Shown here piece after piece: positions 1 through 14,224 of a stretch of 14,364 bases of DNA. This DNA comes from Hydnum rufescens UP504 (Eukaryota > Basidiomycota > Agaricomycetes > Cantharellales > Hydnaceae). The notes below the pieces were generated by a model. That model ran no database searches and was not told the origin of the DNA. It saw nothing but the letters and a program-made list of their open reading frames with translations. Each line of letters starts with the position of its first letter. Positions within the stretch are counted from its first letter, which is position 1. The position numbers and the translations under genes were made by a program. The stretch lies in the NCBI GenBank assembly GCA_014904985.1, contig MU128948.1, positions 6,061-20,424 of the forward strand, read 5' to 3'.

Positions 1-449
1 GGAATAAATAATATAATAATTATTCCAATAAAATGCGAGAAAGAAGAAAATAAAGAGCAGAGCTCAATAAGCATGGAGCTAATTGCAGATGGATTGGCCA
101 CTTTCTATGCATCAGAATGGCCAAATTAAATATAGTAATTTTATATAACACTCTACGTGGCGATTGATTATCTCGGACGATTCTCGCATTTTCAATTTTT
201 CACGCCTCAATTCCTAATAGGGATTGAAGGCGTGAAAATTGAAAAATGCGAGAATCGTCCGAGATAATCAATCGCCCACGTAGAGTGTATATATAAAAAT
301 TACTATATTTAAATTTGGCCAATTCTTGATGCATAGAAGTGGCCCAATCCACTCTGCAATTAGCCATCTCATGCCTTATTGAGCTCTGACTCTTTATTTC
401 TTCTTCTTCGCATTTATTGGATAAATATTTATTATATATTATCTATTCC
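1..449. repeat. Large fold-back palindrome, MITE-like element
   Basis: The left arm (1 to about 212) is nearly the reverse complement of the right arm (about 222 to 449), with the centre at CCTAATAGG (213-221). The pairing can be followed from the centre (CACGCC / GGCGTG), through the arms either side of 150-190 and 240-285, to the ends, where GGAATA at position 1 matches TATTCC ending at 449. Arms of more than 200 bp with almost no loop are typical of fold-back or MITE-type elements. No coding frame is visible. The left end sits on the window edge, so a target duplication cannot be checked and the element may start a few bases earlier. It directly abuts the leader repeat at 451. Confidence 0.85.
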
Positions 450-450
450 A

Positions 451-545
451 TATCTACATGCTTGCTATTGATGTGTGCTGTGCTTGTAGCGCCAGCACTT
501 GGCGCTTCCTGAGTATCGGCAATTGCCAGTTGAATTTCACATCTT
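451..545 (+). repeat. Array leader repeat, copy 1
   Basis: This stretch, starting TATCTACATGCTTGCTATT, is repeated almost unchanged at 2327-2424. Both copies are followed by the first hairpin A and the first intron of an array block, so I read it as the 5' leader of the block. It carries small inverted repeats (GCGCCAGCACTTGGCGC and GGCAATTGCC). An ATG at 459 opens a frame that is conserved with copy 2 for about 15 codons and then differs because this copy has one G fewer in the TTGGGCGC stretch. Function unknown. Confidence 0.8.
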
Positions 546-597
546 CTTTTTCATCTCCGCAACCACAACAACGAACCGCCCGAAAAGGCAAGCGTGG

Positions 598-737
598 ACC
601 ACACACCCACACAGCGGGTGTGTGGTCATAAGGTGAGTTTTTTTTTGCTTGTAGATACGACGGCGCAAAAAGAGCAGCAAAGCTGTCTTTTTGCGCCTCT
701 TTGAATCTTTTTACTAACATATCTTGTATTCTTCTAG
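598..737 (+). other. Hairpin-intron unit 1
   Basis: Hairpin A (598-626, arms ACCACACACCC / GGGTGTGTGGT) is followed 6 nt later by a donor-like AAG|GTGAGT. The intron-like segment 633-737 (105 nt) contains hairpin B (662-697, GGCGCAAAAAGAGCAGC arm, right arm one C short), a branch-point-like CTAAC (714-718) and the acceptor TTCTAG ending at 737. All four signals are in the order and spacing of a fungal spliceosomal intron. Splicing itself is inferred. Confidence 0.75.
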
Positions 738-1101
738 ATTGAGGCCTGGGGTCTAAGGCACGACGAAAACCCATGAAACGAGGGCCCAAACGCAACACCT
801 GAACGAAACCCAAATGATGCGACATACAGCAATGGCCCCACCACACGACATACGGCATGCACCAATGACGTGACATACGGCACCACGCCCACAATGCAAC
901 ACACGCAACCACACCGACGCGACACACGCATCACAGCCAACGGACACAATACACGGCACCATGCCAAACTCGACACTGCAACGTGCCAAACGCGCGATAC
1001 ACGGCAACGCCAAACGACGTCAATACACTGCAACCGCAAATGAGGACGCGACATAGGTAACGGGCAAACGAGACGCGACCACGCCATATGAGGCCCCAGG
1101 A
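738..1101 (+). other. C/A-rich exon-like spacer, array block 1
   Basis: The segment between intron 1 and hairpin A2 is C/A-rich and T-poor on the + strand, with a loosely repeated word of the type CCAAATGAxGACGCGACA. All three forward frames meet a stop soon after the acceptor (TGA or TAA within about 40 nt), so it is not coding as it stands. Long minus-strand open frames here are products of the T-poor composition and look like no protein family. Related spacers occur in every unit. Confidence 0.6.
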
Positions 1102-1244
1102 ACCACACACCGCCATGGCGGGTGTGTTGTCCTATTTAAGGTGAGTCACCACCCCCGTAGCTACAACCGCGCAAAAAGAGCAGCAAAAGCTGCTCTTTTT
1201 GCATGGTGTTTAAACCTCAACTAATTATAAACTTTCTATTATAG
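1102..1244 (+). other. Hairpin-intron unit 2
   Basis: Hairpin A (1102-1130, GCCATGGC at its tip) lies 10 nt before AAG|GTGAGT. The intron-like segment 1141-1244 (104 nt) holds hairpin B (1171-1202, perfect 14-nt arms), CTAAT (1221-1225) and an acceptor TAG at 1242-1244. Unit 2 and its downstream exon are the counterpart of the unit at 5415-5560. Confidence 0.75.
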
Positions 1245-1369
1245 GTCTTTTACTTCGCCCAACGAATACCCGATGCAACCCCCCCCCCTCCTGACCCCGC
1301 CATCAAACTCCGAACGACGGGGTCCTGGGGGACCCACAAACCGCCGTACATGAGCGGAGTACAGTCCCA

Positions 1370-1521
1370 GTACCCCACACCGCTGCAGCGGGTGTGGGTA
1401 CTACAAGGTATTTTATATTATTTTATTTCTTATTCTCGTGGCGCAAAAAGCAGCATATGCGCTCTTTCATTGCATTCATCATTTTTTACTAACACTATTA
1501 TTATTCTCTATACCTGGCCAG
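1370..1521 (+). other. Hairpin-intron unit 3, acceptor damaged
   Basis: Hairpin A (1370-1401) has an outer stem GTACCCCACAC pairing with GTGTGGGTAC, unlike unit 1 but changed on both arms. Donor CAAG|GTATTT is at 1408. Hairpin B (1443-1473) is degenerate, with several unpaired positions. CTAAC is at 1489-1493, but the expected TTCTAG reads CTCTATAC, so the usual acceptor is lost. The next usable AG is CAG at 1519-1521. It reads as a decaying copy of the unit. Confidence 0.6.
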
Positions 1522-1652
1522 AACCCGCCGAACCCCGACCATAAACCCACGGAACAACACGCCGCAACGAAACCGTGAATGACCCCCACAAACGAAAACT
1601 GCAGGTAGACTATACAACCCACCGTACGTACGGACCCGTAGTACAGGCCTCA

Positions 1653-1805
1653 GTACCTGACACCCGCTGCAGCGGGTGTGGGTACTGCAAGGTCAGTTTT
1701 CTTTTCCTTTTTATTTTTATTCTTGTGGCACAAAAAGAGCAGTTTAAGCTGCTCTTTTTGCGCTGCATTACTGTTCAACTAACCTTTCATTTTAAATTCC
1801 TCTAG
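1653..1805 (+). other. Hairpin-intron unit 4
   Basis: Hairpin A (1653-1685, perfect centre CACCCGCTGCAGCGGGTG) is followed 6 nt later by CAAG|GTCAGT. The intron-like segment 1692-1805 (114 nt) contains hairpin B (1728-1763), CTAAC (1779-1783) and CTCTAG ending at 1805. The exon that follows begins ATCCTGAACC, as do the exons at 5844 and, in part, 8078. Confidence 0.72.
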
Positions 1806-1940
1806 ATCCTGAACCCGAACTCTGTTACACCCCAACCACAAACCCGCGAATGACGCTCCACAAACGAAAACCGTGAACAAGCGCCACGAACGAAAATCTG
1901 CTCCCCCGAGGAGCCCCAAATTGACCCGGCCCTGACTGGG

Positions 1941-2042
1941 GCATATGGACCCCACCTGCTGCGGGGGTGTGGTGGGTATATGCAGGTGCATGGCCTGCAT
2001 GAACTATGCCCCCCCCTGGGGTGGCAAACCCCAGGGGGGGGG
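1941..2042 (+). repeat. Terminal hairpin A5 plus C-run/G-run hairpin D
   Basis: The last hairpin A of block 1 (1941-1983) has an extended outer stem, GCATATG with TATATGC, around a CCCCACC/GGTGGG core. No intron follows it. Instead a second inverted repeat, hairpin D (2009-2042), pairs a C8 run plus TGGGG with CCCCA plus a G9 run around a TGGCAAA loop. The pair is repeated at 5982-6087, so it is a fixed 3' module of one block type. Confidence 0.8.
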
Positions 2043-2285
2043 ATAATATGTATATAGCGTAATATGTATATAATAATAAGTAATAATAATAATAATATAA
2101 ATAGTAAACAAACAATAGTAAATAAACAAATAATCTAGCACAGCCATGGATTGGCTGATAGATGGCCAAAAAAACTGAATATGGAATGGCTTGATTCGCC
2201 GAAAGGTCTCGGGGACCTCTAGGTACCATTTTCTGCCCCGAAAGTGGTACCTAAATTAGGTCCCCTATGTGACTGACCAGCTGAG
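2043..2285 (+). repeat. Array tail module with hairpin C, copy 1
   Basis: An AT-rich run (2043-2133, GTATATA and AATAAT repeats) leads into a CAGCCATGGATTGGC segment and then hairpin C at 2211-2265. The arms of hairpin C are GGGGACCTcTAGGTACCA and TGGTACCTAAATTAGGTCCCC around a TTTTCTGCCCCGAAAG loop. It ends with TGACTGACCAGCTGAG. The same order recurs at 6088-6301, and hairpin C with TGACTGACCA also occurs at 4921-4986, marking the end of array blocks. Confidence 0.8.
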
Positions 2286-2326
2286 TAAAAAATTTCGAAA
2301 CAGTGCATCATCTACCTTTTTTTTTA

Positions 2327-2424
2327 TATCTACATGCTTGCTATTAATGTGTGCTGTGCTTGTAGCGCCAGCACTTGGGCGCTTCTTGAATATCGGCAAT
2401 TGCCGGCGTTGAATTTCGCAACTA
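2327..2424 (+). repeat. Array leader repeat, copy 2
   Basis: Second copy of the leader at 451-545. An ATG at 2334 opens a frame that stays open to the next donor: 2334-2564 is 231 nt, 77 codons, ending exactly at CAT AAG|GTAAGT in phase 0. The N-terminus MLAINVCCACSAS is conserved with copy 1 apart from N to D. If the next intron is spliced, the frame ends after 11 more codons at TGA in exon 2668, giving an 88-residue product rich in T, A and H. No family is recognised and coding is unproven. Confidence 0.7.
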
Positions 2425-2527
2425 CGCAGCCACACCCAGCAACAGAAAGGCGACCGCACAACCACGACACAACAGCAACAGCAACAGCAGCAACAGCAGC
2501 AGCCCTAGCGCACGACCACGACCACAT

Positions 2528-2667
2528 GACCACACACCCGCTGAGGCGGTGCTGTGGTCATAAGGTAAGTTTGTCTCAATACATACAATAGCGCAAAAAG
2601 AGTAGCGCAAGCTACTCTTTTTGCGCTGCTGTGAATTTTTATACTAACATAGCCTTTATTATTCCAG
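2528..2667 (+). other. Hairpin-intron unit 6
   Basis: Hairpin A (2528-2559, outer stem GACCACA with TGTGGTC) is 5 nt before AAG|GTAAGT. The intron-like segment 2565-2667 (103 nt) contains hairpin B (2590-2627), whose arms read GAGTAGC and GCTACTC where most copies have GAGCAGC and GCTGCTC, a matched two-sided change. CTAAC is at 2644-2648 and the acceptor ATTCCAG ends at 2667. This is the first intron after leader copy 2. Confidence 0.78.
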
Positions 2668-2715
2668 ACCAAAACCAAAAACAAACGACAGGCCACCCAA
2701 TGAGTGGCCCCAGGA

Positions 2716-2757
2716 ACCACACCCGCTGCAGCGGGTGTGGTCCTATTTAAGGTGAGT
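2716..2757 (+). other. Truncated unit 7: hairpin A and donor, no intron body
   Basis: Hairpin A (2716-2741) is a perfect 26-nt palindrome. Ten nt later comes AAG|GTGAGT at 2752, but no hairpin B, branch point or acceptor follows before the next exon-like C/A-rich stretch (GAAACGAAACG repeats, about 2791-2900). The intron body appears to have been deleted, leaving an orphan donor. Confidence 0.7.
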
Positions 2758-2915
2758 CTCCCGATTGGCCAGGGCCCAGTGGAAATACGCAAAACCACGC
2801 GAAACGAAACGAAACGAAGCCAAACGAAACGACGCCCAACCCCACGCCAAACCCAACGAAACCACGCCACACCCAACGAAACAACGCCAAGCGAAAACGC
2901 GAGAGGTGGCCACGC

Positions 2916-3055
2916 GAACCACACACCCGCTGCGGCGGGTGTGTGGTTCTATACAATGTAAGTAATCTTGTGCACCCCAACGGCGCAAAAAGAGCAGCAA
3001 ATGCTGCTCTTTTTGCGCTGGTTTTAATTTTTTAACTGATAATGTTTTATTCTAG
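2916..3055 (+). other. Hairpin-intron unit 8
   Basis: Hairpin A (2916-2949) has perfectly paired 15-nt arms, GAACCACACACCCGC and GCGGGTGTGTGGTTC. Donor CAAT|GTAAGT begins the intron-like segment 2958-3055 (98 nt), with hairpin B (2983-3018, perfect 16-nt arms), a CTGAT branch-like site (3036-3040) and TCTAG ending at 3055. Confidence 0.78.
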
Positions 3056-3154
3056 GTATCACCACAAATGAAGACCCATGGAGCGAGCCCCCCCCCCGAG
3101 ATCAAACTCCCGCAAAACGAGACCCGTGAGCGACAATGCGCCAAACGAAGCCAC

Positions 3155-3306
3155 GAACCACACACCCGCATGGTAGCGGGTGTGTGGTTCTATACAAGAT
3201 AAGTAATTAGTGCACCCCCCCCCCTCACCAACGCAAAAAGAGCAGCCCTTGCTGCTCTTTTTGCGTTTGTTTTAATTTTTAACTAATAGATTCTCTATTA
3301 TTCTAG
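3155..3306 (+). other. Hairpin-intron unit 9, donor GT changed to AT
   Basis: Hairpin A (3155-3190) has the GAACCACACACCCGC outer stem of unit 8. At the donor position the sequence is CAAG|ATAAGT (3199) in place of GTAAGT. The acceptor is an ordinary TTCTAG (3306), not the AC of AT-AC introns. Hairpin B (3231-3266) is perfect, with ACGC / GCGT ends, and the branch-like CTAAT is at 3283-3287. I read it as a unit that has lost its donor by G to A change. Confidence 0.65.
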
Positions 3307-3437
3307 GCTATCGCCTGAACCACCCGCCAAACGAACCCCCTCTCCGGGAAATGACAACGCAACGCGCCAAGGAACACCCCCCAGACGAAACCCGGGACCG
3401 AGAACGCACGACGCGGGGCCCCAGGGACCCCAGACGA

Positions 3438-3565
3438 ACCACACCCGCTTCGGCGGGTGTGTGATAATTCTAAGGTAAATACAACCACGCAAAAGGAGCA
3501 GCGTACGCTGCTCCTTTTGCGTGGCTCTTCTTTTTTTTCTTTTACTAACATATTTACTATTCTAG
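3438..3565 (+). other. Hairpin-intron unit 10
   Basis: Hairpin A (3438-3465) pairs ACCACACCCGC with GCGGGTGTG around TTCG, so the RNA would carry a C(UUCG)G tetraloop. Donor TAAG|GTAAAT starts the intron-like segment 3475-3565 (91 nt). Hairpin B (3485-3524) is a perfect 40-nt palindrome and uses AAAAGGAG / CTCCTTTT in place of AAAAAGAG / CTCTTTTT. CTAAC is at 3545-3549 and TCTAG ends at 3565. Confidence 0.78.
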
Positions 3566-3739
3566 ATGGTCAAGCAAAATGACAACCCGCCGAACGAACC
3601 CGCCCAACTCCCCCCTGGGAATGATGATGCGACCTGCCAAAACAACACGTGCCAAACGAAACACGCCAACGACGACCGGCCAGACCAAACCCAAGAGAGT
3701 ACCACACACCCGCTTCGGCGGGTGTGTGGTAATTTTAAG
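3566..3739 (+). other. Exon-like segment with PNE-type repeats
   Basis: The 174-nt segment between intron 10 and intron 11 is open in at least two forward frames. One begins at ATG 3566 and reads MVKQNDNPPNEPAQLPPGND. The alternative frame joins, across introns 9 and 10, with open frames in the exons at 3056-3198 and 3307-3474, giving about 161 codons if unit 9 were spliced. Because the + strand is T-poor, stops are rare by chance, so openness alone is weak evidence for protein. No family is recognised. Confidence 0.35.
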
Positions 3740-3840
3740 GTGAGTACAACCGCGCAAGAGGAGCAGCGTACGCTGCTCCTTTTGCGTGGCTTCTCTTGTT
3801 TTTTTTTTTTACTAACGTATTATTTATTATTTTATTTTGT
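3701..3840 (+). other. Hairpin-intron unit 11, acceptor missing
   Basis: Hairpin A (3701-3730) pairs 13-nt arms perfectly around TTCG, the C(UUCG)G tetraloop geometry. TAAG|GTGAGT begins at 3740, hairpin B lies at 3753-3786 with one G-T pair that is a G-U wobble only in a + strand RNA, and CTAAC is at 3812-3816. The expected YAG near 3840 reads TTTTGTCAT, so no acceptor is present at the normal distance. Confidence 0.65.
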
Positions 3841-3956
3841 CATCTGGACCTAACACCTGCGACCCCGCCGAATGAACACGAGAGAACGACGACCCACCCG
3901 CCAAACGAATCCCGCAAACAGCAACGAGTCGAAACCCCAACGCAAGCCCCGGACGA

Positions 3957-4100
3957 ACCCCACACCCGCTTCGGCGGGTGTGTGGTAATTTTAAGGTGAG
4001 TACAACCGCGCAAGAGGAGCAGCATACGCTGCTCCTTTTGCGTGGCTTTCCTTGTTTTTTTTTTTACTAACGTATTATTTATTATTTTATTTTGTCATTT
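3957..4100 (+). other. Hairpin-intron unit 12, acceptor missing
   Basis: A near tandem duplicate of unit 11. Hairpin A is at 3957-3986 (two mismatches in the outer stem, TTCG loop), donor TAAG|GTGAGT at 3996, hairpin B at 4009-4042 (loop ATAC instead of GTAC), CTAAC at 4067-4071. The acceptor region again reads TTTTGTCAT. Shared loss in units 11 and 12 shows the duplication came after the mutation. Confidence 0.65.
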
Positions 4101-4213
4101 GGACCCAACACCCGCGACCCCACCGAACGAACACGGGAGAACGACGACCCGCTCGCCAAACGAATCCCGCGAACAGCAACGAGTTGAAACCACGACGCAA
4201 GCCCGGACGAACC

Positions 4214-4352
4214 CCACACCCGCTCGAGCGGGTGTGGTAATCTTTAAGGTAAGTATATATGTACATGTCCGACTATGCAAAAGGAGCAGCAGGGGCTGCT
4301 CCTTTTGCCTGGTTTTTTCTTTTTTTAACTAACTTATTATTTATTATCATAG
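4214..4352 (+). other. Hairpin-intron unit 13
   Basis: Hairpin A (4214-4237) is a perfect 24-nt palindrome with CTCGAG at its centre. TAAG|GTAAGT begins the intron-like segment 4249-4352 (104 nt), with hairpin B (4277-4308, AAAAGGAG type), CTAAC (4329-4333) and TCATAG ending at 4352. Confidence 0.77.
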
Positions 4353-4465
4353 GTATTCTTCTGAACCCGCATCCCCCAACCGAAGCCACGACCCCGCCGA
4401 GTGAAAACACGCGACCATGGGTGAGGGGGAACCCCAACGGTGAAGCGCGAAATAATGTCCCCGGT

Positions 4466-4651
4466 ACCACACACCTGCCCAAGCGGGTGTGTGGTGCTAC
4501 TAGATACTAGATAGTTGTTATTTTAATTTTTTTGTTCTTTGATTCACATGGACAGTACCACACACCCGCTAGAGTGGGTGTGTGGTGCTACTAAGTAGTC
4601 TTTTTTTTATTTATTTCTACGGAGTACCACACACCAGAGTGGGTGTGTGGT
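4466..4651 (+). repeat. Three successive A hairpins without introns
   Basis: Hairpin A recurs at 4466-4495, 4557-4586 and 4626-4651 with no donor or hairpin B between them. Loops shorten along the series, the third lacking the CCGCT of the standard left arm (ACCACACACC AGAGT GGGTGTGTGGT). The stretches between are T-rich (runs of T, ATTTTTT) and may be remnants of intron 3' halves. They precede the AT-rich tail. Confidence 0.8.
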
Positions 4652-4986
4652 ATAATTTTAAATAAATAAATAAATAATAAGAATAAAACACGGGACTCCT
4701 GAATGAAACCCCACTGACCCGGGGTAGCATAAGTATAATATAGTGATAATAAATAAATAATTATAAATGGAAGATATTATCCCCGATAAGCCCGTATGGC
4801 CTGCTGCAAGTCTGAGATTCTCCAAGTCCCAGTTTCGGCCAATTTTCGGCCATTTCGGCCAATTCTGGTTCAGGAGGTGAAATCATAAAAATGGCCATTT
4901 CGGCCGAAATAGTGATGGGACCTACTTAGGTACCATTATCTGCCCCAGAAGTGGTACCTAACTAGGTAGGCTTAGATGACTGACCA
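4652..4986 (+). repeat. Array tail module with hairpin C, copy 2
   Basis: An AT-rich run (AATAAATAAATAAATAATAAG) leads to a GATAAGCCCGTATGGCC segment, then a cluster of TTTCGGCCAA words and TTTCGGCCGAAA, then hairpin C (4921-4970, CCTACTTAGGTACCA with TGGTACCTAACTAGGTAGG), ending ATGACTGACCA. The 4655-4833 part is present as an inverted copy at 13299-13460. AATAAA-like words could act as polyadenylation signals for a + strand transcript (inference). Confidence 0.75.
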
Positions 4987-5021
4987 AGGTGTTTTTACTA
5001 ATGTGCTTTTAATTATTCTAG
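4987..5021 (+). other. Orphan intron 3' end
   Basis: Directly after tail copy 2, the sequence reads TTTTTACTAATGTGC...TTATTCTAG, which is the branch point (CTAAT, 4998-5002) and acceptor (TAG, 5019-5021) part of a unit intron without hairpin A, donor or hairpin B. It marks a truncated start of the third array block. Confidence 0.65.
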
Positions 5022-5089
5022 CTGGGCCCTCGTCCAACGCACGATGGTAACCCACAAAATGACCGGAGCCCAAACACCCACACGACCCA

Positions 5090-5312
5090 CCAACGCAGCA
5101 CAGCAACGCGACATGCCAACGCAACGCGACACGCCACGCAACGTGACACGCCAACACAACGCGACATGCCATGCAATGCGACACACCACGCAACGCAACA
5201 CGCCACGCAACGCAACACGCCACGCAACGCAACACGCCAACGCAACACGCCAACGCAACACGCCACGCCAACGCGACACGCCAACGCAACACGCCACACC
5301 AACGCGCCCAGG
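5090..5312 (+). repeat. Degenerate minisatellite in exon-like segment
   Basis: Short tandem repeats of CCACGCAACGCAACACG (17 nt, three consecutive copies around 5186-5236) and the shorter CCAACGCAACACG alternate with variants. Long open frames in several phases and on the minus strand here follow from this C/A-rich composition and do not resemble known proteins. Confidence 0.8.
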
Positions 5313-5414
5313 GCATGACATGTGGCGCCACACCAAACGAGGATGCGACCGCATCAAATGGGGATGCAACCATGCCAAACGAGGACGCACCCACGCCTAA
5401 TGCGGGCGCCAGGA

Positions 5415-5560
5415 ATCACACCCGCCACGGCGGGTGTGTGGTCCTATGTAAGGTGAGTCCCCACCCCACCCAGTAGCTACACACACGCAAAAAGAGCAGC
5501 TTTCGCTGCTCTTTTTGCGTGGTGTTCAATTATTAACTTATTTAATTTCTTATCCTGTAG
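5415..5560 (+). other. Hairpin-intron unit 17
   Basis: Hairpin A (5415-5442, CACACCCGCC / GGCGGGTGTG) is 10 nt before AAG|GTGAGT. The intron-like segment 5453-5560 (108 nt) contains hairpin B (5485-5520, perfect with ACGC / GCGT ends) and ends CCTGTAG. The branch site is weak (ATTAACTT, no CTAAC). It is homologous to unit 2, as is the exon that follows (GTCTT...GCGAATACC in both). Confidence 0.68.
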
Positions 5561-5687
5561 GTCTTGACTCCTCTCGCAAGCGAATACCAATGCGAACCCC
5601 CCACAACCCCGCTTATCAACACCCGAACGACAGGGCACAGAGGATCCGTACGAACCGCCGTACGTACAGCCAGAGTACACGGCCCCA

Positions 5688-5843
5688 GTACCCCACACTC
5701 CCGCAGCGGGTGTGGGGTACTACAAGGTATGTTTTATTTTTTATTTTTATTTCTTATTCTTGTAGCGCAAAAAGAGCAGCATAAGCTGCTCTTTTTGTGC
5801 TGCATTACTGCTCTACTAATATTTTCATTATTTATTTCTTTAG
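5688..5843 (+). other. Hairpin-intron unit 18
   Basis: Hairpin A (5688-5720) has the GTACCCCACAC outer stem pairing with GTGTGGGGTAC, like units 3 and 4. CAAG|GTATGT begins the intron-like segment 5727-5843 (117 nt). Hairpin B (5765-5800) has one G-T pair, CTAAT is at 5816-5820, and CTTTAG ends at 5843. The upstream exon resembles that of unit 3, while this intron and the downstream exon resemble those of unit 4. Confidence 0.75.
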
Positions 5844-5981
5844 ATCCTGAACCAGAACCCCTGCAAGCCCCCAAGCAGAACCTGCCGAACGACACGGCAA
5901 ACAGTTACCGCGAACAAAGCCCCGCAAATGAAGACCGACTCCTTTGAGGGAGCGCCCAAATGGAATCGGCCCCTGACTGGG

Positions 5982-6087
5982 GCATATGAACCCCACCCGC
6001 TGCGGCGGGTGTGGTGGGTATATGCAGGTGCGTGGTCCGCATGAACCATGCCCCCCCCTGTGGTGGCAAACCCCAGGGGGGGGGGGG
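5982..6087 (+). repeat. Terminal hairpin A19 plus hairpin D, copy 2
   Basis: Copy of the 1941-2042 module. The hairpin A has the GCATATG / TATATGC outer stem around CACCCGCTGCGGCGGGTG (5982-6025), followed by hairpin D (6051-6087), a C8 run paired with a run of 12 G. No donor-intron follows. Confidence 0.8.
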
Positions 6088-6301
6088 ATAATATGTATAT
6101 AGCATAATATGTATATAATAATAGTAATAATAATAAATAAATATATAATCTAGCACAGCCATGGATTGGCCGATAGATGGCCAAAAAACTGAATTGGAAT
6201 AGCCTGATTTCGGCCGAAAGGTCTGGGGGACCTATTAGGTACCATTTTCTGCCCAGAAGTGGTACCTAAATTAGGTCCCCCATTTGACTGACCAGCCTGA
6301 G
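6088..6301 (+). repeat. Array tail module with hairpin C, copy 3
   Basis: Same order as 2043-2285: AT-rich GTATATA/AATAAT run, CAGCCATGGATTGGCCGATAG segment, TTTCGGCCGAAA, hairpin C (6225-6281, with five more G-C pairs at its base than a simple TAGGTACCA stem) and TGACTGACCAGCCTGAG. The array similarity stops at about 6301, where the gag fragment begins. Confidence 0.8.
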
Positions 6302-7202
6302 TTATACCTTGGTGAGCCATCCGCTTCAACATTAGATGTGTTCGCTATCTGTTCCTGTAGGACTCGGGCGACACCTCCTTTATCCACGTCACCACAAGGC
6401 AAATCCGAGCCATCGAACTTCACGAGACGTCCCTCATGCGAAAACTTCAAAATCTTCTTCGCAATAAAAGCTTTGGTCTCCGGGCAGTCCCTCAGTGAGT
6501 GCCCATTCTCTGTGCACATGAAACATGTTATTGATGATCCAGAAGGCCTAGGAGGCCTCTTTGTTGACCTATCCACCTCAATCGCAATCGTCAAACGGCC
6601 GATCTTATCGACAAGGTCGTCGATATTCAATTTTGACGTGTCCCGGGCTCCTGCGCCTGGGGCTTAGCTTCCTGTTGGAGCTTCATGGTAGGTTCTTCTC
6701 TCTTGACCTTCGACTCAAGTCTAACGCGACGTTTCTTAGACTTAGATTGACTAGTATCTTTCTCGACATCCGAATCAGACATTGAGGACTCGTCGTCCGA
6801 ATCCGAGGAACTCAATACACCCGTCTCGCTCAAGACTTCTGGGCTTTCGTCATCATCAACAACATGGTAAAGATCTTGCTTAAGACGGGTTTTAATGGTA
6901 CTAATAACCTCGTTCATAGGTGGGGGTTTTGTCAAGTCCATCCATAATTCAAGATTCATGAGGACATTAGTGACGTTTTCACGAAAGGTACGAGGCTTTA
7001 AACCTCTCCAAAAATAGTCATGTTTATCAGTCTCAGATAGAGACCGGTGGTCTTCAAGCGCCTTTGCGATAACTTTGAACTCACAAATGTATTCATCAAA
7101 CTTTTGGATAGACGTTAAATTACAACTCTTCCTAGCTAGTTTGATGAGATGGTCGAGTTTGTAATAAGGCTTTTCTTCCTCAGACGGATAGTACTCAAGT
7201 AA
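6302..7202 (-). pseudogene. Gypsy-type retrotransposon Gag fragment, frameshifted
   Basis: Reading on the minus strand from 7202, an open frame begins within Gag. It has a helical segment (KLDHLIKLARKSCNLT, then FDEYICEFKVIAKAL and a YFWRGLKPRTFRENV motif), followed by an acidic and basic linker rich in S, D, E and K. That frame stops at 6627. The sequence resumes in another frame from about 6640 with DDLVDKIGRLTI and a CCHC zinc knuckle (CFMCTENGHSLRDC, about 6520), typical of the nucleocapsid part of fungal Ty3/gypsy Gag. It lacks the N-terminus and all of Pol. It is cut at 7202 (TGA at 7203-7205, next to the LTR) and fused at 6301 to an array tail, so it is a dead fragment with one frameshift. 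The family assignment rests on motif memory. Confidence 0.75.
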
Positions 7203-7207
7203 TCAAG

Positions 7208-7876
7208 TGTCAGGGTTCGCCCCCAACTCCGGTCTACTCCGGTCTACTCCGGTCTACTCCGGTCCTCGTCTGCCCACCTCCAGTCCGGTTCTCCACTTAT
7301 TTCCCTCGCCCAAGTCCACTTTGCTTCCGGCTTGATTCCGGTTTGACTCCGGTCCAACCCTATCTTGGTTTCATTTCCTTTTCATTTCCCTTTCATTTCC
7401 CATTGCTTCCGGTTCACCCCTGGCCGAGTTCCTGTTCCTGTTCCTGTCCCCCTTGTAACCACCTCCAGTTTAGCGATCACTCCCCCGTAGTATAGTCATC
7501 ATGTATAAGTAGTCCGAGAGCGAAGTCCAGAGACCCCAGCTTTGGTCTCTCAGGATTTCCGCTGTTACTCCGGACTACAGGTCAGCCTTCATGTATTCCG
7601 TATTCGTATTACATAATCTCAGGATTTCCGCTGTTACTCCGGACTACAGACTACAGGTCCGAGTATTTTCCAGTTGACTCCGCGAGCTTAAGGACCGCTG
7701 TGCTCGTTTCCGCCTAGTCCCTTCCGGGCTGCTGGATTGCCTCTCCGTCCCCTCCTATCTTCGTCATCTCATTCCTGCCCGGATTCTCTCGGACTCAGCC
7801 GGACTTACACCGGACTTAGCCGGAATTATCTGTGTTTATATTTGTTTGGTGCTCTCGTCGCAGCGTGGCCCTGACA
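7208..7876 (+). mobile_element. Solo LTR 1, gypsy-type, without target duplication
   Basis: The segment starts TGTCAGGG and ends GGCCCTGACA, giving matched TG...CA ends, and its 3' two thirds match the LTR at 10323-10959. Inside are TATAAGTAG (from 7504), a tenfold-period repeat TCCGGTCTAC near 7228-7264, and a 32-bp direct repeat at 7549-7580 and 7618-7649. The + orientation is inferred from the TATA position and from the T-rich 3' end. The flanks are TCAAG on the left and GACCC on the right, so no target-site duplication is present. The adjacent gag is on the opposite strand, so it is not the interior of this element in a simple arrangement. Confidence 0.78.
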
Positions 7877-8290
7877 GACCCCCCCCAAACAACAATCTGC
7901 CGAACAAACACTGGCCAAATGGCCACCCGCCAAACAAAACTGCCCAAACCACACACCCGCTGCAGTGGGTGTGTGGTAATATATAAGTAGTGTACACAAC
8001 CATGCAAAAAGAGCAGCAAATGCTGCTCTTTTTGCACTGGTTATAAATTTTAACTAACATCTTATTGATTTTTCTAGGACATCGCCTGAACCAGAACCCA
8101 GTGAATGAAACACATGCCCATAGATAGATGTGTATATAATAACTTAATGATTATCCATGAGAACAAACAATAATAAGTAAATAATCATAGTTGCTGATAA
8201 GCCTGTATGGCCCGTTGACCTGCTTGGGGGCATTCCTGGGCTTGCTGGGGCCTATCCTGATACCCCCAGGCAAATATGAGTTTGATATCA
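7877..8290 (+). other. Hairpin-intron unit 20 and degenerate tail
   Basis: After LTR 1 the array type resumes. An exon-like C/A-rich stretch precedes hairpin A (7948-7977, one G-T pair). The donor position reads ATATAAGT, not a GT donor. Hairpin B (8004-8035) is perfect, CTAAC is at 8054-8058 and TTTCTAG ends at 8077. The exon start (CATCGCCTGAACCAGAACCC) resembles exons at 3307 and 5844. An AT-rich tail follows with TGATAAGCCTGTATGGCCCG (8192-8211), matching tail copy 2, but hairpin C is not found. Confidence 0.7.
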
Positions 8291-10317: not shown

Positions 10318-10322
10318 CTAGG
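10318..10322. repeat. Target-site duplication CTAGG, left
   Basis: CTAGG precedes the LTR at 10323 and the same five bases follow it at 10960-10964. Removing the LTR and one copy restores the transposase reading frame. Confidence 0.9.
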
Positions 10323-10959
10323 TGTCAGAGTTCATCCGTTTCCCGGTTAATTCCAGATTTGTTTCCGGTTTGTTTCCAGTTTGTTTCTGGTTTTGGTTCC
10401 AGCCTGTTTCCGATTTGTCCCTGTCTCCCCTTCATTCCCCCTTCATTTCCGCATTTCCTTTACTTCCGGTTCCCACACACTTACCCCTGGCCCTGTCCCT
10501 TCCCCCTCCACTTTCCCATCCCCTGCCCACTCCCCCTCTTGTGCCTGCCCCCCTGTAACCACCTCTCATTAAGCGATCAGTCCCCCATAGTATAGGACCT
10601 ATGTATAAGTAGTCCAGGGTGAAATCCAGAGACTCAGCTTTGGTCTCTCAGGATTTCCACTTCTACTCTGGACTACAGGTTAGCCTCACTGTACCTATTC
10701 CCTTAATGTTAAACTCAGGATTTCCGCTTCTACTCCGGACTACAGTCCGAGTACCTTCCAGCTGACTCCGTGAGCTTAAGGACTGCTGTGCTCGTTTCCG
10801 CCTAGTCCCTTCCGGGCTGCTGGATTGCCTCTCTGTCCCATCCTCATTATATCGTTCTTGCCCAGATTCTCCTGGACCTAGCCAGACTTACACCAGACTT
10901 AGTCGGAGTTATCTGTGTTTATATTTGTTTGGTGCTCTCGTTGCAGCATGGCCCTGACA
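10323..10959 (+). mobile_element. Solo LTR 2 inserted in transposase
   Basis: Starts TGTCAGAG and ends GGCCCTGACA, with TATAAGTAG from 10604 and the same CTCAGGATTTCCRCT..CTCCGGACTACAG repeats as LTR 1. At 637 bp it is somewhat shorter than LTR 1 (669 bp) and differs mostly in its first 250 bases. It is flanked by CTAGG on both sides, the 5-bp duplication usual for gypsy integration. No internal region remains, so it is a solo LTR left by LTR-LTR recombination. Confidence 0.92.
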
Positions 10960-10964
10960 CTAGG
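10960..10964. repeat. Target-site duplication CTAGG, right
   Basis: Right copy of the five-base duplication flanking solo LTR 2. It is part of the codons for ILA in the uninterrupted transposase. Confidence 0.9.
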
Positions 10965-12669
10965 ATGTTGTCGCGAGTAAAGGATTTGAGGTGAGCAGCT
11001 CCATAGACTTTTAGGAAGGTCTCTTTCGTAACCTTGAACCCTGTTGTTGTCTCAAAGGTATGCACCTCATCCGCCCAAGCCCACTTTGCTGCAGAGAAGA
11101 CCACTACATCCAGAGCTTGCAGTGCATGTGTTGAGTGTGATGGGAAGCATAACACAACAATATTATGAGTGTCAGCATAATTGATGAATGCGATTGACTC
11201 GTGGGAAACATGTCCATCGAGTAACAAGAGACGAGGCTCGCCTGGGTGTGCCAATTTATCTTGAGTCTCTTTGTTAAAGTGCTCTAACCAGTTCAATGGT
11301 ATTTCGCTGTCAGTCCAGCCCTTACTAGAGTGACAATACCTATGAGAATAGCAATTAATAGCATAGAGAAGAGTGGGTAAGTACAGTACCCACGCAGTCT
11401 CAATAGGGTTTTCTTGTAGCCAATCCTTCATAAAGTACTGACCCTTGAATATGACTGTAGGTGCAATAGAGGTGCCATCTGCGCATATTGCAGCCAGCAC
11501 CGTAACGTTCTCCTTGTCGCCACTACATCGCTTTTTCTGGTGCTTCAATCCCTTTCGACCCACTACACACTCCCTGCCGCTTGCACCGAGTGGATAGCCG
11601 CTCTCATCAAAATTGTAAATATTGCAATCGCAAAAGTGATGTGTATTATAGGCCTTCTTCAACATATCAAAGTAGTTCTTTGTATTTTCGGGTTTAGGGC
11701 GGCAGCACAGACAGTGTCTAGCCCTGAGCTCCATAACGAGGTGAGTCAGTCACTGTGCTTGGCCACAAACCGGTGAGACCAGTTCTTCCCAATCTCTGTA
11801 AGGTCTGGGTTCCGTTTCTTGGCAATCTCGAGGGCATAAGCACGGATCTGTTCAAGGGTCAAAGGAAAGCCACAGTCGGCCATCTTGAGGATGAAGTTGA
11901 TCAGTACTTCACTCTCTTCAAGATTAAGGTGACTTTTCTCTGCATTAGCTTGGCTTGTTGTTTTCCCCCCTTCTAGATGCTGTCTTAGGGTGTTCCTATC
12001 CACCCCAAGTTTCTTGGCCATACCACGAATACTAGGGATATTGTCACCATTGAGATGTGCTTCATTGGCTGCAACATGATACACATCTACTGCATGACTA
12101 TGGTTTGCATCACGTGCATGGGTCACAATGTGGGCTTTACGTTCTTGAGACAATGCATGTTTCAGCATAGGTAAGCAGCCTATTAAGGAAAGCGGTGTGT
12201 ACGATGTGAGGCCGGGGGCTCAGGAAGCCAATTGAGATGAAGTGTGTCTGTTGGAGATTGAAAGTTTATTGTTTCCGTGATTTCTCCGTCAAAACAAACA
12301 CCCATACTTCATGCCAATAATAAATATTGTTCCCATACATGTCATCATACCTTTCTGTAGATTTCCGAAGGTTGGGAGGGTACAAGAAATAAAAAAAAGC
12401 TTGCTGCGGAATTGGGTGCTTACAAAAATCATCTCAAGAATGCTTTTTAACCCCACTGTACATTTTCTGTGCATCCATTTCACTTCAAATTTGGCACAGA
12501 CACTATGTAGATACACCCCATTAAGGTGCAAAAGAAAGCAAGCAAATATCTTACAAACTGACAGAGATCTGGGGGGGTGGTTCATTGACTGGTCTGGCTC
12601 ATTGATGTCAGGGCGACACTGCCGTCAAAGCCACAAACAGAAAGAGGAAAGAGATTAATTAACCACACG

Positions 12670-13298: not shown

Positions 13299-13460
13299 AC
13301 TGGGACTTAGAGATTCTCAGACTTGCAGGACAGCAGCCATATGGCTTATTGGGGATAATATGCTCCATCTATAATTATTTATTTATTATCACTATATTAT
13401 ACATTTTCATTCAGTAGTCCCATGTTTGTTCTTATTACTTGTTTATTTATTTAAAAAACT
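13299..13460 (-). repeat. Inverted copy of array tail 2
   Basis: Read on the minus strand, this segment follows 4655-4833 closely: AT-rich run with AATAATAAATAAATAATTATA, GATAATATCCCC, GATAAGCC-type segment, CTGAGAATCTC and AGTCCCAGT at the end. It shows that the right-hand array is the same repeat family in opposite orientation and fixes 13299 as its 3' end in this copy. Confidence 0.8.
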
Positions 13461-13506
13461 ATCTACAGTAATACCCACTTGGGTGAAAAAAAAACTATCT
13501 AATAGC

Positions 13507-13536
13507 ACCACACACCTGCTTCAGTGGGTGTGTGGT
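13507..13536 (-). repeat. Hairpin A of inverted array, no intron
   Basis: ACCACACACCTGCTTCAGTGGGTGTGTGGT, the last hairpin A before the tail on the minus strand. It corresponds to the intron-less hairpins at 4557-4651. Confidence 0.8.
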
Positions 13537-13609
13537 ACTAGGGTGTGCCTTGGCACTTCACCATTGGGTGTGGGTCACGGGTTGTGTTTGCCGTGCTTCA
13601 ATTTGGATC

Positions 13610-13741
13610 CTAGTTAGTAAAAAAAACTAAGTGATGCAAAAGGAGCAGCTTGCACAGCTCCTTTTGCATCATTGTAGATATAGAAATTTAAAAAAAAAAG
13701 CCTTGTAGTACCACACACCCACCAAAGTGGGTATGTGGTAC
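13610..13741 (-). other. Degenerate hairpin-intron unit, inverted array
   Basis: On the minus strand hairpin A (13741-13708) is followed by CTACAAG|GCTTTT where a GT donor would be expected. Hairpin B (13671-13632) has TGATGC / GCATCA ends and a long loop, CTAAC is at 13617-13613, and TAG follows at once (13612-13610), too close to act as its acceptor. A decayed copy. Confidence 0.6.
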
Positions 13742-13875
13742 TGTTTGTATGGTGGTCGTGCCGGTTCATACTCAGTACCAGGGCTGGTCATCATCTAGGG
13801 GTTCATGGGTTTTGTTTGGGGGGTGCATGTTTGTATGGTGGCATCACAGGTCTTGATTGAGGGCTCAAAAGATAC

Positions 13876-14015
13876 CTATGATAATAAGTAATAAGTTAGT
13901 AAAAAAGAAAAACCATGCAAAAGGAGCAGCACATGCTGCTCCTTTTGTGTGTTGCACTAATAGAAGGCAAATACTTACTTTAAAAATTACCCACACCCGC
14001 CGAAGCAGGTGTGGG
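13876..14015 (-). other. Hairpin-intron unit, inverted array, second
   Basis: On the minus strand hairpin A (14015-13990) reads CCACACCTGC TTCG GCGGGTGTGG, again C(UUCG)G, with one T-G pair that is allowed only in a minus-strand RNA. Donor AAA|GTAAGT, intron-like 13978-13876 (103 nt), hairpin B 13948-13917 (AAAAGGAG type), CTAAC 13899-13895, acceptor ATCATAG. Exon continues GTATCTT, as after unit 13 (GTATTCTT). Confidence 0.75.
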
Positions 14016-14094
14016 GTTCATCCCGGGCTTCTGTGGCCTTGCATCATGTTCTGTCATTCTCAGGTTTTGTTTCGGGTGTGGGGGTAGATGAAAC

Positions 14095-14224
14095 CTACAG
14101 TACAGAATAATATGTTAGTAAAAAAAAAGAAAAGCTACACCACAGGAGCAGCATATGCTGCTCTTTGGTGCAATCATATTTATTTACCTTAATTACCACA
14201 CACCCACTTTGGCGGGTGTGTGGT
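14095..14224 (-). other. Hairpin-intron unit, inverted array, first in window
   Basis: On the minus strand hairpin A (14224-14195) is followed 7 nt later by TAAG|GTAAAT. Intron-like 14187-14095 (93 nt) has hairpin B (14170-14138) in which the usual GCAAA end is replaced by CACCA with matching TGGTG, CTAAC at 14118-14114 and TACTGTAG as acceptor. The exon upstream (14225-14364) is of the same loosely repeated type and runs off the window. Confidence 0.75.

What the first reader, a model, noticed from the sequence alone, without database searches (positions are those of the whole stretch)
451..8290. Array of exon-hairpin/intron-hairpin units with fixed geometry
Twenty copies of hairpin A on the + strand (four more on -) end exon-like segments, sitting 5-11 nt before the donor in most copies that have one. 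Fourteen copies of hairpin B on + (three on -) lie inside the following intron, 10-36 nt after the donor. Eleven units have a complete donor-to-acceptor set, 91-117 nt long, ten of them with a clear CTRAY branch site. A repeat in which each copy supplies its own intron with an internal hairpin and a second hairpin at the exon end is not something I can match to a named family. Candidates are introner-like elements, a multi-exon noncoding RNA, or a non-autonomous repeat.
Basis: partly seen in the sequence, partly recalled or inferred. Interest (0 to 1): 0.88.

Follow-up and report, generated by a model that had tools for sequence, protein, structure and literature searches.

The report
Mushroom transposon packed with hairpin introns
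This stretch of the hedgehog mushroom genome holds rearranged copies of a mobile DNA element, present in hundreds of copies, that seems to code for no protein but is predicted to make two outward-running RNAs with many introns, each carrying its own hairpin, so the element is likely kept by selection for being spliced rather than for what it encodes.

Summary
The repeat is real and its geometry holds, but 451-8290 is not one transcription unit. It is a patchwork of pieces of a DNA transposon of Hydnum rufescens UP504. The element has two arms running outward from a near-perfect central palindrome, each ending in GACTGACCARSSTG. Target duplications of 7-8 bp flank 11 of 24 end pairs (9 perfect). 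Each arm is a series of units: unconserved C/A-rich exon, hairpin A, 5' splice site, hairpin B, branch site, 3' splice site. Hairpin B has 5,814 sites genome-wide (up to 3 mismatches; reversed-pattern control 0); a consensus donor lies just before it 867 times and just after it never. Between diverged units exons are no more alike than shuffled sequence, while hairpins and splice signals are. Both hairpins show compensatory changes. Coding tests went against a protein, though one copy has a 321-codon spliced frame. Best reading: an apparently non-autonomous transposon whose arms are non-coding, multi-intron genes, with hairpin B likely folding each ~104-nt intron to about host length (~62 nt). 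Splicing is predicted, not observed: no RNA data were at hand. What the element gains is inferred.

The parts
1..158 (-). Head (promoter side) of a reverse arm, truncated
   Evidence: 86% match to Head on the minus strand
159..276 (.). Central palindrome P between two divergent arms
   Evidence: inverted repeat I3, 89% complementary; lies between two heads in most held copies; in L009 it is part of a 665-bp, 98.6% palindrome
277..450 (+). Head of arm 1, predicted half of a bidirectional promoter (TATATATAA and CCAAT-like boxes by eye)
451..2284 (+). Arm 1: exons with introns 633-737, 1141-1244, about 1406-1515 (degraded here, intact in L009) and 1692-1805; tail ends at the motif GACTGACCAGCCTG, here mutated
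2326..4991 (+). Arm 2 without its head; introns 2565-2667, 2958-3055, 3475-3565, 4249-4352; the units with donors near 3199 (AT donor), 3740 and 3996 (no acceptor) are incomplete here and in L009; ends GACTGACCAAGGTG
2958..3055 (+). Intron whose predicted junction 2957|3056 is used by the public gene model at this place (P0022, BS47DRAFT_1360849)
4992..6299 (+). Arm-1-type fragment without exon 1: 3' part of an intron (acceptor 5021), introns 5453-5560 and 5727-5843, tail ending GACTGACCAGCCTG
7884..8100 (+). Arm-2-type fragment: exon, hairpin A, decayed donor, hairpin B, branch site, acceptor at about 8077
13299..14224 (-). Reverse-strand arm fragment with four A hairpins, three B hairpins and introns 14187-14095 and 13978-13876

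Best explanation
The window holds rearranged copies of an apparently non-autonomous DNA transposon of Hydnum rufescens whose two arms run outward from a central palindrome and are each predicted to be transcribed into a likely non-coding RNA from which many hairpin-bearing introns would be spliced. Shown by sequence: sharp ends with related terminal repeats, 7-8 bp target duplications in 11 of 24 end pairs, divergent orientation of the splice units, and likeness of hairpins and splice signals but not of exon sequence between diverged subfamilies. Predicted: the central palindrome, with a copy of the same head on each side, acts as a bidirectional promoter. Predicted: hairpin B, between 5' splice site and branch site, folds a ~104-nt intron to an effective ~70 nt, close to the host median of ~62 nt, so that it is spliced efficiently. 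Inferred: the element is moved in trans by a transposase made elsewhere. Inferred: many efficient introns raise RNA accumulation and keep the element transcribed and away from nuclear decay or RNA-triggered silencing, so selection among copies keeps the splicing cassettes while exons drift. The role of hairpin A at exon ends is the least certain step.
For: Divergent arms: of 14 end-bounded intervals of 3-10 kb among the listed places on contigs C1-C14, 12 contain exact donor+hairpin B hits and 12 of 12 have minus units on the left and plus units on the right; 2 contain none. Ends: 362+360 exact hits, control 6+4; same two ends in held loci. Target duplications: perfect 8 bp in 5 (one in a GTT repeat) and perfect 7 bp in 4 of 24 end pairs, one mismatch in 2 more. 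Splice cassettes: 115 of 270 complete, shuffles mean 0.84, largest 5; donor before against after hairpin B 867 to 0. Units of different sources: exon identity 0.61 against 0.60 shuffled; hairpin A 0.78/0.58, donor 0.79/0.55, hairpin B 0.77/0.56, branch 0.79/0.57, acceptor 0.73/0.46. Compensatory changes: 4 of 16 hairpin B pairs (-2, 2, 6, 10) and 5 of 8 hairpin A outward pairs (3, 4, 6, 7, 8) exceed all 300 dealt shuffles. Hairpin A: donor on one side in 100 of 148, on both sides in 0. Non-coding: the L009 frame is not open over its length in any of 13 other aligned copies; third codon positions are not the most variable. Public gene models: 11 of the 13 carry a predicted junction peptide; the model at the window itself spans 2957|3056. 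Length: median 104 nt, 70 without hairpin B (100 of 178 units); host CCT introns median 62, 22 gaps, coarse. Precedents, abstracts read: intron stems shorten the branchpoint distance in yeast (PMC2536676); introns raise mRNA levels cumulatively in Cryptococcus (PMC3744415).
Against: No RNA data. The junctions in public gene models may be ab initio guesses, and most donors of P0022 do not agree with the predicted ones. 155 of 270 hairpin B sites lack a full strict signal set and 48 of 148 A hairpins have no donor nearby. The conserved features were chosen by pattern, so part of their likeness is by construction. The dealt shuffles do not keep relatedness, and the variable CpG pairs of hairpin B (-1, 0, 13) do not exceed them. 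The predicted fold does not expose the donor (0.403 unpaired against 0.404 for the segment, 0.420 with hairpin B scrambled; only shuffled flanks are lower, 0.343, p=0.02), so a 'donor presentation' role is not supported. Sense-strand wobble bias is weak in hairpin B (55:13, or 34:13 without two fixed columns, p=0.03 against the exon CpG baseline) and absent in hairpin A (29:22). Among young arm-1 copies only the two hairpins are nominally less variable than exons; donor, branch and acceptor are not. L009 has a 321-codon spliced frame, longer than in 200 of 200 base shuffles. 13 of 24 end pairs have no target duplication. No transposase was found in the stretches read, so the driver is unknown.
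Confidence: 0.6

Rival explanations
1. The palindromes are kept by a DNA process (template switching or conversion at hairpins, or concerted evolution of tandem units) and the splice signals are inherited relics; nothing is selected at the RNA level.
For: Both hairpins are near-perfect palindromes; paired transversions such as A-T to C-G occur with few single-change forms (pair 2: 9 against 6); hairpin A shows no sense-strand wobble bias; tandem duplication of units is plain at 3701-4255.
Against: Donor, branch site and acceptor are not palindromic, yet keep their place relative to the hairpins in units whose exons no longer resemble each other; donor before hairpin B 867, after 0.
Confidence: 0.2
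2. The arms are protein-coding genes of the transposon (public databases list them as hypothetical proteins), the exons encoding fast-evolving, low-complexity proteins.
For: 27 distinct annotated proteins in two searches, all from H. rufescens; L009 arm 1 is open for 321 codons through four introns, beyond 200 of 200 shuffles; parts of that frame persist elsewhere, for example its first 141 codons in L010 at 91%, and L013, L012 and L011 have frames of 313, 256 and 220 codons.
Against: The L009 frame is not open over its length in any of 13 other aligned copies. The long frames of L013, L012 and L011 match it at only 47-56% although the DNA is 93-97% identical, so they are largely other frames. 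8 of 70 exon indels against L009 (12 copies, window left out, shared indels counted repeatedly) are multiples of three; variable non-CpG sites by codon position 19/244, 24/250, 13/227, lowest at the third. Exons do not resemble each other between units. No Pfam family in P0013 or P0022.
Confidence: 0.08
3. Introner-like elements: each unit is a mobile intron that spreads on its own into genes.
For: Thousands of similar hairpin-bearing introns in one genome.
Against: Target duplications and terminal repeats bound the whole element; the 6 apparently isolated loci read lie among other units; exons travel with the introns.
Confidence: 0.04
4. The hairpins are DNA binding sites for a transposase or host protein, and their place beside splice sites is incidental.
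For: Repeated palindromes inside transposons often bind proteins (general knowledge, not tested here).
Against: They keep an order and a short distance to donors on one side only (100 one side, 0 both; 867 to 0), and continue through kilobases of arm.
Confidence: 0.08

Closest known systems
Introners / introner-like elements (Gozashti 2022, PMC9860276: passages read)
   Same: Many similar spliceosomal introns in one genome, spread by DNA transposition with target duplications in many families.
   Different: Here the mobile unit is a multi-kilobase element carrying many introns with its own exons; target duplications bound the element, not the intron. Hydnum is not named in that paper's main text.
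Symmetrical sister stwintrons and cropped introns of Hypoxylaceae (PMC8469720: abstract and passages read)
   Same: Multiplying fungal introns that can fold on themselves.
   Different: Those are integrated in host genes, lack flanking duplications and are symmetric over most of the intron; here a short hairpin lies inside the intron and the carrier is a transposon.
Non-autonomous TIR transposons, MITEs and foldback elements (general knowledge)
   Same: Terminal repeats, short target duplications, hundreds of copies, no transposase gene found, two long inverted arms.
   Different: The interior is two divergent, multi-intron, structured units; I know of no MITE with such conserved content (recalled, not searched exhaustively).
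Zisupton (KDZ) and hAT7 transposons of fungi (Kojima 2025, PMC12730594: passages read)
   Same: Target duplications of 8 and 7 bp respectively; KDZ transposase matches are abundant in this genome.
   Different: No such transposase was found inside an element read here; membership not shown.
Yeast intron stems that shorten the branchpoint distance (Rogic 2008, PMC2536676: abstract read)
   Same: A stem between 5' splice site and branch site.
   Different: There in single host genes; here a cassette repeated thousands of times in a transposon.

Membership tests
TIR DNA transposon | Inverted terminal repeats at both ends | tested here: met
   CA[CC/GG/GC]YTGGTCAGTCA ... TGACTGACCARSSTG in 24 end pairs (pairs were picked by the motif, so its presence is by construction; its frequency against control is 722 to 10)
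TIR DNA transposon | Target-site duplication | tested here: met
   7-8 bp in 11 of 24 pairs, 9 of them perfect; none in 13
TIR DNA transposon | Own transposase (autonomous member) | tested here: inconclusive
   No transposase family in the frames of one whole long interval (L075, which holds a Copia-type insert) and of parts of two others (L073, L074); no autonomous copy seen, most copies not read
Introner | Single intron copies inserted in host genes | tested here: inconclusive
   6 apparently isolated loci of 5,814 sites read; each lies among other units
Introner | Similarity and target duplications end at or near the splice sites | tested here: not met
   Duplications lie at the ends of the whole element
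KDZ / Zisupton | KDZ transposase inside the element | tested here: inconclusive
   154 KDZ matches from 150 scored of 584 candidates; comparing the listed places by eye with the ends, one (C5:444428) lies 1.8 kb inside an end whose partner end is not listed; none lies between two matching ends
KDZ / Zisupton | 8-bp target duplication | tested here: inconclusive
   8 bp in 5 and 7 bp in 4 perfect cases
Protein-coding gene | Conserved reading frame | tested here: not met
   one copy (L009) has a long frame
Spliceosomal intron | GT, CTRAY branch site and AG in order at intron distances | tested here: met
   115 of 270 strict; shuffles mean 0.84
Spliceosomal intron | Removed from RNA | not testable with these tools
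   No RNA data; public gene models use several junctions
Known structured RNA (Rfam) | Match at gathering score | tested here: not met
   0 matches in the window

The most novel reading that the evidence does not exclude
A transposon whose conserved cargo is splicing itself: it codes for nothing and lives by making two outward RNAs studded with hairpin-braced introns that buy it transcription and protection from silencing. This would be selfish DNA selected for intron content and pre-RNA structure.
Probability: 0.35. Interest if true: 0.88.

Novelty: new variant of a known kind. Interest (0 to 1): 0.72.

Why it matters
Introns are usually thought of as passengers of genes or as mobile elements that invade genes. 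Here thousands of look-alike introns sit between apparently non-coding exons of a transposon, and the parts that stay alike between diverged copies are the splice signals and two hairpins. If they are spliced, this is a natural library of several thousand variants for asking how intron structure drives splicing in a basidiomycete, and it makes testable whether a transposon can gain from being spliced (RNA accumulation, escape from intron-sensing silencing). It also suggests that the 27 annotated Hydnum rufescens 'hypothetical proteins' found here are likely not proteins.

Tried and rejected
Rfam search of the window: no match. tRNA search: none. Hairpin B pattern, exact, in viral contigs: none; in prokaryote genomes 2 hits, in a Bacteroidales and a Burkholderiaceae MAG, without a donor before them by eye, taken as chance terminator-like palindromes. 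Donor presentation by the two hairpins: tested by folding, not supported. Coding arms: tested and rejected, with the L009 frame told as evidence against. Introner reading: six loci read, rejected on that small sample and on the place of the target duplications. KDZ as the driver: abundant but not linked to these ends. Long end-bounded intervals as autonomous copies: one whole and parts of two read, no transposase family. Literature: no paper found that describes this element in PMC open-licence text with the terms (listings only, best-ranked papers shown); 'Hydnum rufescens' with 'transposable element' gives one paper, PMC7550596, of which I saw 12 of 21 passages, none about it. Subscription papers and Repbase were not searched.
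Full report
What was claimed and what is there. The counts hold almost exactly: 13 of 14 plus-strand and 3 of 3 minus-strand B hairpins by scan, 19 of 20 plus-strand and 4 of 4 minus-strand A hairpins (and one by eye), and eleven complete introns of 91-117 nt. The bounds do not hold as one unit: 1-2284 is an arm with part of a central palindrome, 2326-4991 a second arm in the same direction, 4992-6299 a fragment like the first arm, 6300-7880 other mobile DNA, 7884-8100 another fragment.

Where it comes from. The window lies in a 63.2-Mb assembly. Searches with arm translations returned only Hydnum rufescens UP504 proteins, 13 of 13 and 15 of 15 (capped at 7,989 scored candidates; one protein is in both, 27 distinct). 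Three lie on contigs with the lengths of G000 contigs (358,723; 337,867; 338,092, the last being the window's contig). Pieces of protein P0022 (BS47DRAFT_1360849) map exactly to arm 2 of the window.

The element. In most held copies two arms leave a central palindrome head to head. In L009 the palindrome is 665 bp and 98.6% self-complementary. Arm 1 ends GACTGACCAGCCTG and arm 2 ends GACTGACCAAGGTG, with sharp borders. The genome has 362+360 ends of the form GACTGACCARSSTG; the reversed pattern has 6+4. Of 24 end pairs (18 picked by hand from the list, 6 from held loci), 9 have a perfect 7- or 8-bp target duplication (one of them in a GTT-rich stretch), 2 a duplication with one mismatch, 13 none. 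Ten of the 11 with a duplication are 4.4-6.9 kb long; the one in the GTT-rich stretch is 13 kb. On contigs C1-C14 the listed places give 14 end-bounded intervals of 3-10 kb: 12 contain exact donor+hairpin B hits and 12 of 12 are divergent; 2 contain none. The nearest listed end within 4 kb downstream of a donor points the same way in 46 of 51 cases, the nearest upstream the opposite way in 27 of 30.

The splice cassette. Hairpin B has 5,814 sites with up to 3 mismatches, control 0. A consensus donor lies 3-33 nt before it 867 times and after it never. In 26 held sequences 115 of 270 hairpin B sites have donor, branch site and acceptor in order; shuffles give 0.84 on average and at most 5. Of 148 A palindromes, 100 have a donor on one side, none on both, 48 on neither.

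What is conserved. Among 28 units from ten sources, 80-nt exon segments upstream of hairpin A are as alike as their shuffled versions (0.61 against 0.60, 89 pairs), and intron filler nearly so (0.45/0.43, 0.52/0.49, 0.56/0.54), whereas hairpin A, donor, hairpin B, branch site and acceptor exceed shuffles by 0.20-0.27. Because those features were found by pattern, part of that excess is by construction; one search is the control for the splice signals. Compensatory changes exceed every one of 300 dealt shuffles at hairpin B pairs -2, 2, 6 and 10 of 16 examined (131 distinct of 159 hairpins with 4-nt loops, out of 180 oriented ones from 263) and at hairpin A outward pairs 3, 4, 6, 7 and 8 of 8 (78 distinct). 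Dealing does not keep relatedness, so this is support, not proof. Among 13 close arm-1 copies, CpG exon sites differ at 0.37 and other exon sites at 0.022; hairpins A and B are lower (0.0069, 0.0078; 134 and 275 of 10,000 exon resamples as low); donor, branch and acceptor are not significantly lower.

Not coding. L009 arm 1, spliced, is open for 321 codons, beyond 200 of 200 base shuffles, which I report against my reading. In none of the 13 other aligned copies is that frame open over its length. Parts persist (the first 141 codons in L010 at 91%), and L013, L012 and L011 have frames of 313, 256 and 220 codons, but these match the L009 translation at only 47-56% while the DNA is 93-97% identical, so they are largely other frames. 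8 of 70 exon indels in the 12 copies other than the window are multiples of three (shared indels counted repeatedly); variable non-CpG sites by codon position are 19/244, 24/250 and 13/227. Gene models P0013 and P0022 hit no Pfam family.

How it may work. Element introns have a median of 104 nt, and 70 without hairpin B (100 of 178 distinct units). Introns of host CCT genes, estimated from gaps between domain matches, have a median of 62 (22 gaps). A stem between donor and branch site that shortens their distance promotes splicing in yeast (abstract of PMC2536676). In the basidiomycete Cryptococcus, removing introns greatly reduces mRNA accumulation for most tested genes and the number of introns acts cumulatively (abstract of PMC3744415). 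From these I infer that the cassettes make the element's RNAs accumulate, and possibly avoid silencing set off by poorly spliced transposon RNA (recalled; only a search listing was seen). Folding gives no support for a role in exposing the donor: 0.403 unpaired against 0.404 for the segment and 0.420 with hairpin B scrambled, though 0.343 with shuffled flanks (p=0.02). A strand test is weakly in favour of RNA-level selection for hairpin B (55:13; 34:13 and p=0.03 after dropping two fixed columns) and neutral for hairpin A (29:22).

Annotation. Public gene models cut through the arms: 11 of the 13 contain a peptide across a predicted junction, and P0022 spans 2957|3056 exactly, while its other mapped pieces start within a codon of the predicted acceptors 2667, 3306, 3565 and 4352 and its other donors do not agree. 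Whether RNA supported these models is not known here.

What it is not. Six apparently isolated hairpin B loci (of 5,814 sites) each lie with other such units within 2 kb, more diverged ones included. No transposase family was found in one whole long end-bounded interval, which holds a Copia-type insert, nor in parts of two others. KDZ transposase matches are abundant (154 from 150 scored of 584 candidates) and Zisupton makes 8-bp duplications (PMC12730594), but no link to these ends was found.

Noticed in passing
window 7207-7876 and 10322-10958: Two related LTR-like segments beginning TGTCAG and ending CCCTGACA (by eye; similar stretches, family D15); the second lies between fragments of a pogo-like transposase on the minus strand.
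   Followed up: partly
window 6271-6959, minus strand: Gag-like fragments directly after the arm tail; weak zinc-knuckle match below the curated cut-off.
   Followed up: partly
window 10919-12168, minus strand: Pogo/Tigger-like transposase fragments: DDE_1 and Tc5-type HTH domains over the curated cut-offs; five distant relatives found.
   Followed up: partly
arm-1 copies, L009-L021: CpG exon sites differ about 17-fold more than other exon sites (0.37 against 0.022), as expected from heavy cytosine methylation or a RIP-like process.
   Followed up: partly
window 3198-3306; same unit in L009 and L012: A unit whose donor reads AAG|ATAAGT (AT instead of GT) in the window and in both other copies, so inherited rather than a new mutation.
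   Followed up: no
window 3740-3840 and 3996-4095; same units in L009 and L012: Two tandem units keep donor, hairpin B and branch site but lack the AG, reading TTTTGTCAT, in all three copies looked at.
   Followed up: no
window 2285-2330: Arm 2 begins here at the predicted transcript start without its promoter side, after a T-run; origin of this junction unexplained.
   Followed up: no
window 541-2010 (arm 1): This copy has 31 short exon indels against L009, most of one or two bases, far more than the other copies; assembly error or a decaying copy.
   Followed up: no
G000 genome: At least 154 KDZ transposase domain matches in one mushroom genome (capped scoring).
   Followed up: no
L075 2432-5748: Copia-type retrotransposon frames (gag, integrase, reverse transcriptase) nested inside an end-bounded interval.
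   Followed up: yes
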